DNA of 10,231 nucleotides from Bacillota bacterium. GTDB taxonomy: Bacteria > Bacillota > Bacilli > Alicyclobacillales > Alicyclobacillaceae. The notes under the pieces were generated by a model. The model saw nothing but the letters and a program-made list of their open reading frames with translations, ran no database searches and had not been told where the DNA came from. The position numbers and the translations under genes were made by a program. The DNA is taken from positions 1 to 10,231 of the forward strand of contig JAKAXI010000045.1 of NCBI GenBank assembly GCA_021816665.1, written 5' to 3'. This document shows positions 6,991 through 10,231 of this stretch, one piece after another (within the stretch, counting starts at the first letter, position 1; each line of letters begins with the position of its first letter).

Positions 6991-7548
6991 TTACGTGTAG
7001 AATTTTCCATCGTGCGATTTACGCAATGTGCGGAACTGTACCACGCAGTGACCAAACCACACATAGGCCTTCGTATCCATTGAAATCTGGTGTATCTTTC
7101 GCACCGTTTGAGTGTAACCGACTGTGTCATAAACCGCCCCGGGCAACAAAATATCGGAAACATAATTGAATGCTGAATACACGTCATCCGAAGCCATGAT
7201 CATGTATCCACAGCCCCGCTTATTCACCTGTAATGCTAACATGCCGTACGAATGCCCGCTGCCCAGGTTCAAAATATTTACGCCTTGGACGAGATGTGTC
7301 CTCTCCTTACTTTTAACCCAAGCATCTACATCGTCCCAGACAAATGAATTAACGTCGGTCCGGGTAATGTAGCTGCGCATCGCAGCGTTTAACTCATCTT
7401 CATGGACGTATATGGTTGCGTTTTAGAACATCTCTACACATCCGGCGTGATCGTAGTGTAAATGCGACAGTACGACATGGCGAATTTCATCCGGAGTGAT
7501 GCCTAGTTCCTCTAATCGATTCGGTAACATTTCTTCGTTTGTAGCAAT
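6991..7548 (-). pseudogene. N-acyl homoserine lactonase-like protein, broken
   Basis: Read on the minus strand, this is the C-terminal ~185 codons of a metallo-beta-lactamase-fold hydrolase of the kind annotated as N-acyl homoserine lactonase. Such enzymes open the lactone ring of quorum-sensing signals. The zinc motif SHLHYDHAG is followed by VEMF, an in-frame TAA (7423-7425), and ATIYVHEDEL. Further on come LNLGSGHSYGML (metal histidine), MASDDVYSAFNY (bridging Asp and Tyr) and VWFGHC (last His), ending RKSHDGKFYT. All key metal residues remain. The N-terminal ~80-90 residues are missing, because homology stops at about 7545 where an intron reverse-transcriptase remnant begins. The segment between DVDAW and GVNILNLG also looks short. 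The internal stop makes it non-functional. Substrate specificity is inferred from family resemblance only. Confidence 0.75.
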
Positions 7549-7555
7549 TCAAAGA

Positions 7556-7811
7556 AATTTCAACAAAATTTCCTGTGACAAACTGCTCCAACTCGTACAA
7601 CAGCGGGTCAGACCGTAGGGTGTTAAAACTCCTACGGAAATGGCTGAAAGCAGAGTCATGAACAACGAGCAGTTTGAGGAAACCGAAATTAGAAGCCCGC
7701 AAGGCGGCGTCATCTCTCCACTTCTCGCGAACATCTATTTGAACTACCTCGATACGGTGTGGGAGAAACGATTCTCTCATCTTGGCACACTCGTGCGCTA
7801 TGCGGACGACC
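7556..7811 (+). pseudogene. Outer intron reverse transcriptase, 5' exon remnant
   Basis: This is the middle of a group II intron reverse transcriptase, up to its active site. Reading across frames gives FNKISCDKLLQLVQQRV (RT-3), then [11 protein letters not shown], then [20 protein letters not shown] (RT-4) and LVRYADD (RT-5, catalytic). Two small deletions are implied: two bases near 7612 (a missing GA between RVR and RRVLK), and one base near 7653 (GCAGAG instead of GCAGGAG). Family proteins would have about 180 more N-terminal residues; these are gone. The open frame that starts at ATG 7640 is not a real gene start. The exon ends directly after GAC GAC, the two aspartate codons of YADD, where the inner intron begins. 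Confidence 0.8.
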
Positions 7812-8050
7812 GTGCGCCACGAAGGCAGCGGGCCTGAAAAGACCCGGGGCCATGCTTAATCGGAGATGAGGGAGGGCCCCTCGAAGCCGCCATGCAGGTG
7901 GAGGCTTCAAACCACCGCAAGCTGCTGTGGTCAAAAGCCATGGTGGTGAGCGTTACGGAAAAGGCGAGGCCTGGACCTCGTCAGATGTGTGCCAGTGGAG
8001 ACGAACACCAGTGAACCGCTGATAAGGTGTCGAAAGCGTAGGGATCAGAA

Positions 8051-8073
8051 CCAGGAGGGAGTCGTTGGCCTGG
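8051..8073 (+). other. Candidate EBS1 loop of the inner intron
   Basis: CCAGG (8051-8055) pairs with CCTGG (8069-8073). The loop contains GTCGTT (8061-8066), which is complementary to GACGAC (7805-7810) at the end of the 5' exon: five Watson-Crick pairs and one U-G. EBS1 is normally displayed in such a terminal loop of domain I. A pairing of six bases can arise by chance, but loop position and adjacency to the splice site support it. Confidence 0.6.
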
Positions 8074-8343
8074 GATGAGTCTGGAGGAAAACCTGTTTAC
8101 TGTGCAGATGGTGACCGGCATGGAGGCGGCGTGAACGTGGCACAGGCTTCGATTAGGAACGTGGGAACCTGCCTGTCGATGCTAAGGGAAAACTCCAAGC
8201 GGAAGAACCGCAAGGACGAAAGTACCGATGCGACATGCAGGGGCGGAACAACCCGTAGTAGTCATGAAGCTTCGTAATGGGAGTGGTGCGAAGGGGTTGT
8301 GTTATCCAGTTTTGGTCAGGGGTCAACCGCAAGGGAGGAGCCA

Positions 8344-9558
8344 ATGAGCAAAGCAAAGTCTTACGAAATCTCCAAGCACGTGGTACTTGAAGCGTTCCAA
8401 CGAGTAAATGCCAACGGGGGAGCTGCCGGAGTAGACGGAGTTAGTCTGGAGAAGTTTGAGTCAAACTGGAAGGACAACCGATATAAGATCTGGAACAGGA
8501 TGTCGTCCGGGAGTTATTTCCCACCTCCGGTGAAAGCGGTGGAGATACCCAAGAAAACGGGAGGTACGCGAGTACTTGGAGTGCCCACTGTGGCAGACCG
8601 AGTCGCGCAGATGGTCGTGAAAATCTATTTTGAACCGAGTGTGGAAGCACACTTTCACCCGGATTCGTATGTACCGACCAGGGAAATCAGCGGCAGTTGC
8701 ACTTACGGTTACCCTTAAGCGATGCTGGAAATACGACTGGGTGCTCGAGTTTGACATCAAGGCGCTGTTTGACAACATTGACCATGAACTGTTGATGAAG
8801 GCGGTACGCAAACATACGGATAACCCGTGGATGATTCTCTACATTGAGAGATGGCTGAAGGCACCAATGCAGATGCCAGACGGGGTTGTAATGGAGCGGA
8901 CCAAGGGCACGCCGCAAGGTGGCGTGGTCAGCCCAGTATTGGCCAACCTGTACCTGCACTACGCGTTTGATAAGTGGATGGACAAGAATCATCTGGATAA
9001 ACCGTTTGCTCGATATGCGGATGATGCTGTGGCCCACTGCCATAGCATGAAGGACGCACTGGAGTTACGGAGCAGCCTTGAACAGCGGTTCAGGGAGGGC
9101 GGACTGGAGCTTCATCCAACGAAAACGCGCATCGTCTATTGCAAGGACGATGACCGGCGCAGGGACCACCCGGAAACAACCTTTGATTTTCTTGGGTATA
9201 CGTTCCGAGCACGCAGGTCGAAAAACAGGTGGGGCAAATACTTCATCAATTTACTCCAGCCGTCAGCAACAAGGCGAAGGCCGCGATGCAACGAGCCATA
9301 CATGACTGGCGCATGCATCTAAAGCCGGATAAGACGGTTGAAGACCTATCCAGGATGTTCAATCCTATTATTCGAGGTTCGGTTAACTACTACGGACGCT
9401 TTTACAAGTCGGAATTGTACTCCGTACTCAGACACCTGAACCGAGCGCTTGTTCACTGGGTCAGAAGGAAGTACAAGAAGTTCAACCGGCACAAGCGACG
9501 AGCATATGATTGCCTCGGTAGAATTGCCCGACGCGAACCGCAACTGTTCGTGCACTGA
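8344..9558 (+). pseudogene. Inner intron reverse transcriptase/maturase, two frameshifts
   Basis: The protein would reverse transcribe the intron at its target and help it splice. ATG 8344 follows AGGGAGGAG. RT-0/1 covers ANGGAAGVDGVSLEKFE, VEIPKKTGGTRVLGVPTVAD and RVAQMVVKIYFEP. RT-2 should read HPDSYGYRPGKSA but a two-base loss near 8671 breaks the frame. RT-3 (VLEFDIKALFDNIDHELL), RT-4 (GTPQGGVVSPVLANLYL), RT-5 (FARYADDAVAHC) and RT-6/7 (LHPTKTRIVYC, TFDFLGYTFRAR) follow in the next frame. A one-base loss in a T run near 9251 (INFTPAVSNKAKAAM expected) shifts it again. The X/maturase domain (MFNPIIRGSVNYYGRFYKS, LNRALVHWVRRKYKKF) ends at FVH, so there is no endonuclease domain. The repaired length is about 405 residues. 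Both breaks are short deletions in repeats or homopolymers and could also be sequencing errors. Confidence 0.87.
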
Positions 9559-9591
9559 CAGATGGGGATTTTGCCTGGGGCTGGATAGTGG

Positions 9592-9625
9592 GAGCCGGAT
9601 GAGCTGAGAGGTTCAAGTCCGGTTC
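9592..9625 (+). other. Group II intron domain V
   Basis: These 34 bases fold as a canonical domain V, the catalytic heart of the ribozyme. An eight-pair stem (GAGCCGGA/TCCGGTTC) contains the AGC triad. It is followed by a U-G pair and a two-base AA bulge on the 3' side. A five-pair upper stem (GAGCT/GGTTC) is capped by GAGA, a GNRA tetraloop. No disabling change is visible. Confidence 0.93.
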
Positions 9626-9628
9626 TGA

Positions 9629-9662
9629 GAGGGCCTTGGGGTGAGATTCCCCAGGGCTACTC
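9629..9662 (+). other. Group II intron domain VI with bulged branch-point A
   Basis: GAG (9629-9631) pairs with CTC (9660-9662). Then G9632 pairs with T9658, leaving A9659 as a single bulged base, and GCCTTGGGG (9633-9641) pairs with CCCCAGGGC (9649-9657). A9659 is the expected lariat branch point, six or seven bases from the 3' splice site depending on which intron end is right. Confidence 0.85.
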
Positions 9663-9665
9663 ACC

Positions 9666-10212
9666 TGGTCATCTTGTGCGAAAGGAAAACGCACGCTCTG
9701 GAAGACATCCAAGTACTCAAGGCAGTATTCGGGAAACTGGAACTGACCATGAATACGGACAAGTCTAAACTGGTGAATTTGCGGATCGACAAAGATGGAT
9801 TCGATTTTCTTGGATTCCATCACCGTCGATTGCCCAAGTTGTTCAAGGCAGGGAAGTTCTACGACCTTCGTAGTTTCCCATCCAAGAAAGCGATGAAGAA
9901 GATGCGGGCAAAGGTGAAGGAAGTAACTGCACCAAGGTCTCGGCTGTTCTGGTCGCCTAAACAGATGGTGGACAAGCTTAACCCCATCATTCAGGGATGG
10001 GAGAACTACTATGGGAGCGTAGACCCTGCCGTGTCGAACCAGTATCTAAAGGAAGTAGATTGGAATCTCAACCGGAGACTGACACTGTACTGGAACAAAA
10101 ATCATAGAGAAAGCATCTGCACCCGAAGAAGGTCGCAGAGGTGTTTTCGAGCATGGGACTGAAACGAGCAAGCGCGTATGGACAGAACTTGAGTCCGCGC
10201 ATTTGTTGGTAG
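9666..10212 (+). pseudogene. Outer intron reverse transcriptase, 3' exon remnant
   Basis: This continues the split reverse transcriptase after YADD: LVILCERKTHALEDIQVLKA completes RT-5/6, MNTDKSKLVNL and DGFDFLGFHHRRLP form RT-6/7, and LNPIIQGWENYYGSVDPAVS is the X (maturase) domain. The frame runs to ~10110. There a one-base loss in an A run (about 10110-10112) throws it into a premature stop at 10160-10162. In the next frame the genuine C terminus continues as KHLHPKKVAEVFSSMGLKRA, then SAYGQNLSPRICW, ending at TAG 10210-10212. The compact end, without an endonuclease domain, fits class C. An apparent start within 9641-9665 lies in the inner intron and is spurious. Confidence 0.85.
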
Positions 10213-10231
10213 CTATAAGGTACAAGGTGAA

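What the first reader, a model, noticed from the sequence alone, without database searches (positions are those of the whole stretch)
7556..10231. Group II intron nested in the YADD active site of another group II intron
Seen: the outer reverse transcriptase stops at RYADD, GTGCGCC follows, and LVILCE resumes after a complete domain V and VI. Exact removal restores RYADDLVILCE in frame. Known: nested group II introns (twintrons) have been reported in a few thermophilic cyanobacteria and archaea. Inference: the inner intron belongs to a lineage that targets the conserved codons for the RT catalytic motif, so it spreads by parasitising and disabling rival introns.
Basis: partly seen in the sequence, partly recalled or inferred. 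Interest (0 to 1): 0.85.

Follow-up and report, generated by a model that had tools for sequence, protein, structure and literature searches.

The report
Intron that homes into reverse-transcriptase genes
A self-splicing genetic parasite sits inside the active-site codons of another parasite's copying enzyme, and its relatives in many bacteria and some archaea do the same, apparently using an RNA guide that tolerates spelling differences between codons.

Summary
Confirmed and extended. The inner group II intron (7812-9665) has D1-D4 and D5/D6 matches, and an uninterrupted 85-86% relative of the outer reverse transcriptase (RT), L112, shows the exact join 7811|9666. In the window both elements are decayed: the outer is a 5'-truncated, broken remnant from 7559; the inner RT has two frameshifts. 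The targeting inference holds: of 66 distinct related copies with a resolved 5' end, found without regard to flanks, 55 lie one base after codons for [YF]xDD; 42 of 56 readable 5' exons match RVT_1. Guides explain it: EBS2 GCGUA and EBS1 AGUCGU pair with TAYGC and AYGAYT, with G opposite the third codon positions in 161 of 165 cells; wobble pairs fill 96 of 165 there and 2 of 440 elsewhere. Eight copies have rewritten guides, two of them in UG18/UG4-type RTs (YQDD, YMDD). Near-identical copies in one genome occupy outers of different ribozyme types. Disabling is not shown; splicing could restore the host RT. Homing into group II intron ORFs is known (Methanosarcina); the cross-class, codon-tolerant YxDD form was not found in the papers searched.

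The parts
7559..7811 (+). 5' exon: remnant of the outer group II intron RT gene, truncated on its 5' side, with an in-frame stop at 7616-7618
   Evidence: RVT_1 E 7.5e-8 for 7619-7810; homology to empty relatives begins at 7559; tblastn with the L112 protein 74% over 85 residues
7799..7811 (+). Target: TATGCGGACGAC codons for YADD plus one base; IBS2 TATGC 7799-7803, IBS1 ACGACC 7806-7811
7812..9665 (+). Inner group II intron, 1854 bases, GTGCGCC ... CTACTCACC
   Evidence: empty site in L112; Rfam; comparison of copies
7868..7986 (+). Domain I-IV region, Rfam group-II-D1D4-2 (RF01999)
   Evidence: 112.7 bits, E 3e-23
8036..8040 (+). EBS2 GCGUA (inferred by complementarity)
8060..8065 (+). EBS1 AGUCGU (inferred), in the 13-base loop of a CCAGG/CCUGG hairpin
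   Evidence: hairpin in the predicted fold, but the 66-base stretch folds no better than shuffles (z 0.78)
8344..9558 (+). Intron-encoded RT/maturase, broken by frameshifts near 8671 and 9232-9253
   Evidence: tblastn with intact relatives; RVT_1 E 3.8e-26 for 8741-9241
9014..9025 (+). The inner RT's own YADD codons, a potential self target with G at -1
   Evidence: sequence
9590..9665 (+). Domains V and VI (RF00029)
   Evidence: 55.9 bits; fold -43.7 kcal/mol, z -5.0
9666..10231 (+). 3' exon: rest of the outer RT with the GIIM maturase domain, frameshifted near 10108-10153; contig ends before the outer D5/D6
   Evidence: GIIM E 2.3e-13; L112 86%, whose D5/D6 falls just past the contig end; frameshift

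Best explanation
The inner element is a retrohoming group II intron, probably class D/IIB3, from a lineage whose home is the YxDD catalytic-site codons of other reverse transcriptases, mostly those encoded by group II introns of other ribozyme types. Intron RNA guides (EBS2 GCGUA, EBS1 AGUCGU) pair with TAYGC and AYGAY(T). G opposite each synonymous third base lets one guide accept either Tyr and either Asp codon. Reverse splicing then places the intron one base past the second Asp codon. Because it can be spliced out again, the host RT may survive. Shown here by comparison: site, exact boundaries in the window, guide-target complementarity, guide rewriting at other sites, recent within-genome spread. 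Inferred: retrohoming chemistry, in vivo splicing, and selection for wobble tolerance. The window copy is a decayed member inside a remnant of an outer intron.
For: 55 of 66 distinct copies lie after [YF]xDD codons. RVT_1 in 42 of 56 5' exon pieces; GIIM in 25 of 50 3' pieces. Guide-target pairing 10.38 of 11 on average, against at most 9.74 in 2000 permutations. Third-position wobble 96 of 165 cells versus 2 of 440 at the other eight positions; guide G in 161 of 165. Rewritten guides: L108 YQDD TATCA/TGGTA, L109 YMDD TATAT/ATGTA, L047 TGCTA/TAGCA, L062 ACGTAA/TTACGT. Exact empty site. Inner RF01999 in 38 of 38 chosen loci, with outer ribozyme parts on both sides in 18 of 38, the outers of Rfam types D1D4-3, -4, -5 and -6. 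Inner introns identical over 1868 bases in Sporosarcina lie in a D1D4-6 outer (L068) and a D1D4-3 outer (L070).
Against: No mobility or splicing experiment. Copies are related by descent, so guide counts are not independent events; on the tree the YxDD label needs 7 changes, only modestly fewer than shuffles (mean 9.3). 11 of 66 copies lack the [YF]xDD codons, and L043, L044, L061 and L082 carry them outside a recognised RT. The -1 base is unpaired in 11 of 55. The guide has U opposite the invariant G at -7, so not every guide base is optimal. 19 of the 80 loci gave no resolved 5' end; of four of these looked at, none shows YADD, so adding them would give 55 of 70. EBS labels rest on complementarity and a predicted hairpin that is not significant against shuffles. 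The intron does not end in the usual AY (recalled consensus): it ends ACC.
Confidence: 0.88

Rival explanations
1. The shared position is inherited: an ancient intron-in-RT arrangement passed down with its host intron, not repeated insertion.
For: Some pairs share close hosts, such as L053/L056 and L100/L101.
Against: Identical or near-identical inner introns in one genome sit in different outers: L068 (D1D4-6) versus L070 (D1D4-3), 0 of 1868 differences; L053 (D1D4-6) versus L055 (D1D4-4), 15 of 1872. Empty homologues of the window's outer exist.
Confidence: 0.05
2. Site choice is set mainly by the RT protein recognising flanking DNA, and base pairing is secondary.
For: Group II proteins contact distal 5' exon bases (stated in PMC3522654, passage read).
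Against: Copies occur where little but the guide match is kept, such as L061 in a terminase gene, and rewritten guides match their new sites.
Confidence: 0.07
3. The intron is an inhibitor that disables rival introns and gains by it. This concerns its effect, not its targeting, and can hold together with the best explanation.
For: The insertion splits the catalytic motif, so an unspliced host transcript cannot give an intact RT (sequence).
Against: Phase is preserved and host frames stay open on both sides in 31 of 66; copies in outers with both ribozyme ends (18 of 38) fit a tolerated passenger as well.
Confidence: 0.3
4. Assembly artefact or chance resemblance in a fragmented MAG.
For: G000 is 72.6% complete in 319 contigs.
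Against: Same arrangement in many unrelated assemblies and in plasmid records L125, L126 and L127.
Confidence: 0.02

Closest known systems
Methanosarcina acetivorans nested group II introns (Dai & Zimmerly 2003, not held; summary passages read in PMC4424553, and PMC2882425)
   Same: Repeated site-specific homing of group II introns into other group II introns; nested arrays. Two Methanosarcinaceae MAG contigs, L046 and L051, carry members of the present lineage.
   Different: There described in archaea and, by its title, into related intron ORFs. Here many phyla, hosts of other ribozyme types, and a site defined as YxDD codons. I could not check which codons the 2003 paper reports.
Thermosynechococcus elongatus F3-in-F1 twintrons (PMC2882425, passages read)
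   Same: An intron evolved to insert at one conserved site in another mobile intron.
   Different: ORF-less inner introns inserted between two start codons of the outer RT, within one genome.
Introns of insertion sequences: class D RmInt1/RmInt2 (PMC5894124, passages read); E.c.I4 in IS3 elements (PMC3522654, passages read; its class was not checked)
   Same: Introns using a mobile element's gene as home; sister copies L047, L054, L102, L129, L130 and L131 sit in transposase genes.
   Different: Their homes are transposons; here the home is the RT active site.
Hamiltonella c-Ha.de.I1 (PMC3522654, passages read)
   Same: Three copies inserted in other copies of itself at a specific position, like self-nested L083.
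   Different: Position and guide not given in the passages read; EBS motifs said to be unknown for that subgroup.

Membership tests
Group II intron (inner element) | GUGYG 5' end | tested here: met
   GTGCG at 7812
Group II intron (inner element) | D1-D4 and D5/D6 ribozyme domains | tested here: met
   RF01999 and RF00029 above gathering score
Group II intron (inner element) | RT/maturase encoded in domain IV | tested here: met
   TIGR04416 428 bits and GIIM in intact relative L031; the window copy is frameshifted
Group II intron (inner element) | Self-splicing and retrohoming | not testable with these tools
   needs experiment
Class D / IIB3 (RmInt1-like) | RT/maturase without En domain | tested here: met
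   L031 protein matches only RVT_1 and GIIM in Pfam at E 1e-3
Class D / IIB3 (RmInt1-like) | Groups with class D reference proteins in a tree | not tested
   no labelled reference set; the class assignment rests on recall of RmInt1-like proteins
Twintron (the window itself) | Inner intron inside a complete outer intron | tested here: not met
   Window outer is truncated at 7559. Among relatives, outer domains on both sides in 18 of 38 chosen loci
Twintron (the window itself) | Sequential splicing | not testable with these tools
   needs RNA data

The most novel reading that the evidence does not exclude
A retroelement lineage has evolved RNA guides that in effect read a protein motif rather than a fixed DNA sequence: G opposite Y-ending and U opposite R-ending third codon bases, so that it can invade the active-site codons of many reverse transcriptases whatever the host's codon usage. 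Repeated guide rewrites have carried it into UG-type RTs and, in sister lineages, into catalytic-region motifs of transposases.
Probability: 0.5. Interest if true: 0.85.

Novelty: new variant of a known kind. Interest (0 to 1): 0.74.

Why it matters
If right, this is a natural programmable retroelement whose guide tolerates synonymous codons and so tracks a conserved catalytic motif across phyla and across rival intron types. It gives a concrete case of mobile elements preying on one another's key enzyme, explains some orphan 'GIIM domain' genes beside complete RT genes in annotation, and makes guide evolution and hyperparasitism testable in named hosts such as Sporosarcina globispora.

Tried and rejected
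Chance placement was rejected. Vertical inheritance alone was rejected. A comparison with a free EBS1 register was too lenient and was replaced by a fixed register. An intron end at 9664, giving the usual AC end (recalled consensus), was considered and rejected: it would put the join out of frame, and the empty site fixes the end at 9665. The EBS2 of plasmid copies picked by a simple pattern was not reliable and is not used. A by-eye frameshift in the outer 5' exon was not borne out as such: tblastn shows one frame with an in-frame stop.

Literature: ten searches of the held library. In their listings and in the passages I read of ten papers nothing describes YxDD codons as a home or guides placed for wobble. 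Dai & Zimmerly 2003 and the 2002 compilation are not held, so priority could not be excluded.

Rows dropped: five loci identical to others (L001, L003, L004, L007, L028) and one duplicate flank (L069). 19 of the 80 loci had no resolved 5' end; some run off contig ends and some diverge. Four of the latter were looked at: none shows YADD; L093 reads ...VWCADI and L096 lies after codons reading ...GTPQ in another phase. L048 is cut at the contig edge. In the Rfam count of 18 of 38, L053 was not counted because its downstream D5/D6 follows a second D1-D4.

Full report
What is there. The window is the whole of contig C144 of an incomplete genome (72.6% complete, 319 contigs). An intron of 1854 bases, 7812-9665, interrupts an RT gene one base after the codons for RYADD. 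Rfam places its D1-D4 part in RF01999 and its D5/D6 in RF00029; the last 76 bases fold far better than shuffles (z -5.0). An uninterrupted relative of the outer RT in another genome of the same family (L112) aligns at 85% to the 5' exon and 86% to the 3' exon at adjacent bases, so the join is exact. L112 has an open stretch of 447 residues across YADD, with its own D1-D4 (RF02003) and D5/D6.

State of the window copies. Both elements are decayed. Homology to outer relatives begins at 7559 in six of the ten loci with a 5' hit (five distinct places; L118/L122 begin further in, L123/L124 match only 36 bases). The host is therefore a remnant joined to a broken reverse-strand gene with an HLHYDH motif and an internal stop. 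The outer RT also has an in-frame stop at 7616-7618 and a frameshift near 10108-10153. The inner RT has two frameshifts, whereas 50 of 57 copies with both ends have an open frame of at least 400 residues. The intron ends ACC rather than the usual AY (recalled consensus); the empty site fixes this end.

Does the lineage target YADD? I searched 101 genomes, the window's own included, by DNA (20 of 101 with a match, several only short stretches) and a collection of about 85,000 species by a piece of the inner RT (480 stretches encode a relative, best 80 kept). Neither search uses the flanks. After removing duplicates, 66 distinct copies had a resolved 5' end; 61 of the 80 loci are represented, 19 are not. 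In 55 of 66 the bases before the intron read codons for [YF]xDD followed by one base. Of 56 5' exon pieces of 20 residues or more, 42 match RVT_1; of 50 3' pieces, 25 match GIIM and 3 Intron_maturas2. Four of the 55 are not recognised RT genes: L061 lies in a PBSX-type terminase gene, L043 and L044 match no NCBIfam family, and L082 has only five open codons. These look like ectopic sites that match the guide. Of eight plasmid loci that I fetched from the 20 listed (588 records matched), L125, L126 and L127 lie after YADD codons, L128 has one copy after YADD of another copy, L132 reads GYAD-stop, L130 and L131 lie after WHLDE, and L129's 5' end was not resolved.

What are the hosts? I scanned 38 chosen loci, mostly those with long flanks, with Rfam. 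The inner is RF01999 in 38 of 38. In 18 of 38, outer D1-D4 domains lie upstream and a second D5/D6 downstream; the outers belong to Rfam types D1D4-3, -4, -5 and -6. So the inner lineage enters introns of other ribozyme types. In Sporosarcina, inner introns identical over 1868 bases lie in a D1D4-6 outer (L068; L069 has the same flanks and was not scanned) and a D1D4-3 outer (L070). In Bacillus sp. OV166, L055 (D1D4-4 outer), L056 and L057 carry identical inners, 15 of 1872 bases from L053 (D1D4-6 outer). This is recent, independent spread.

How the site is found. Aligning the intron 5' regions locates two short stretches that pair with the target: EBS2 GCGUA with TAYGC, and EBS1 AGUCGU with AYGAYT. 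EBS1 lies in the loop of a predicted hairpin, though that 66-base stretch folds no better than shuffles (z 0.78). With fixed registers the guides pair 10.38 of 11 bases with their own site, against at most 9.74 in 2000 permutations. In the 55 [YF]xDD copies the guide has G opposite the third codon position of Tyr/Phe, Asp and Asp in 161 of 165 cells, and 96 of 165 of these cells are wobble pairs; at the other eight positions 2 of 440 are. Targets use both codons (T/C 35/20, 34/21, 30/25). One guide thus reads all synonymous spellings. Caution: the copies share descent, so this is a property of a few lineages rather than 55 events; and the guide has U opposite the invariant G at -7.

Rewritten guides. 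L108 and L109, a well supported pair on the tree, sit after YQDD and YMDD with EBS2 changed to TGGTA and ATGTA, matching TATCA and TATAT. Their hosts match PADLOC RT_UG18 (E 2.5e-112) and RT_UG4 (E 1.3e-48; RT_UG18 1.1e-45), and the same profiles continue in the 3' exons; NCBIfam's group II RT model matches both far below its cut-off. PADLOC files these models under DRT; a defence role for these two genes is not shown. L047 lies after codons for CYDN in a transposase gene (rve_2), with EBS2 TAGCA and EBS1 CGTTGT; G faces each third position, twice over T. L054 lies after WYTDI in a transposase gene (HTH_21 before, rve_3 after), pairing 10 of 11 with its own guide and 6 of 11 with the standard one; its guide has G opposite the third base of an ATA codon, a mismatch. 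Two rhizobial plasmid copies, L130 and L131, lie after WHLDE in DDE_Tnp_IS240 genes, with an EBS1 CTTCGT, read by eye, that pairs with both GAT-GAA-G and GAC-GAG-G. L062, L084 and L103 have EBS1 complementary in 6 of 6 positions; EBS2 fits poorly (1 of 5) in L084 and L103.

Self and non-self. The inner RT genes carry YADD themselves. In 61 copies where I found it, the base at -1 is G in 59, and the guide pairs 10 of 11 there in 49, while 35 of 61 pair 11 of 11 with the occupied site. So self sites are slightly disfavoured but not excluded: L083 has one copy inserted in another's own YADD codons, and L128 likewise.

Disabling or passenger? Insertion is in phase. In 31 of 66 copies both sides are open for at least 150 residues; two of these are not RT on at least one side (L054 a transposase, L091 a DNA methylase on the 3' side). 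This fits either recent insertion or restoration by splicing; it does not show disabling.

Tree. On 61 proteins the YxDD label covers 51 rows and needs 7 changes (bootstrap 6-8; shuffled mean 9.3; 8 of 500 shuffles as low), so the label is clustered only modestly. YxDD rows come from Bacillota, Methanobacteriota, Pseudomonadota, Thermodesulfobacteriota, Nitrospinota, Chlamydiota, Chlorobiota and Myxococcota. Several of these are MAG contigs and may be misbinned. The window row uses only 167 residues and has no firmly supported group.

Known context. Group II introns homing into other group II introns are known in Methanosarcina (summarised in PMC4424553 and PMC2882425, passages read; original not held). 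T. elongatus introns insert between start codons of outer RTs, and Hamiltonella introns insert into their own copies (PMC3522654, passages read). I found no description of YxDD codons as a home or of wobble-placed guides in the searches listed under Tried and rejected. I therefore call it a new variant of a known kind.

Noticed in passing
window 6994-7557, minus strand: Decayed gene with an HLHYDH motif (metallo-hydrolase-like, recalled) and an internal stop, abutting the outer RT remnant; a 129-residue piece matches no Pfam family. The rearrangement that joined them is unexplained.
   Followed up: partly
L108:857-3598 and L109:1223-4215: Intron copies inside UG18- and UG4-type RTs at YQDD and YMDD, with guides changed to match.
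   Followed up: partly
L047, L054, L102, L129, L130, L131: Related introns in transposase genes (rve or DDE_Tnp_IS240 type domains in the 3' exon), near what look like catalytic motifs (recalled). L093 reads VWCADI and may be alike.
   Followed up: partly
L096:1434-1524: A diverged relative follows codons reading ...DDGTLFATPAGTPQ, which resembles the TPQGG motif of RTs (recalled): perhaps a second RT motif used as a home.
   Followed up: no
L128:769-4451: Related intron after RWIENPYY codons (transposase-like, recalled) that contains a second copy after its own RYADD: a three-level nest on a Bradyrhizobium plasmid.
   Followed up: partly
L125, L126, L128: Public annotation splits the interrupted outer RT, leaving 'group II intron maturase-specific domain' genes next to a complete RT gene.
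   Followed up: no
L123:4206 and L124 (minus strand): Two viral-collection contigs carry the TAYGCNGAYGAY-intron junction with identical 22-base 5' flanks; whether they are viral was not checked.
   Followed up: no
L035:3872-6384: About 2.5 kb inserted within the D5/D6 region of an inner intron copy.
   Followed up: no
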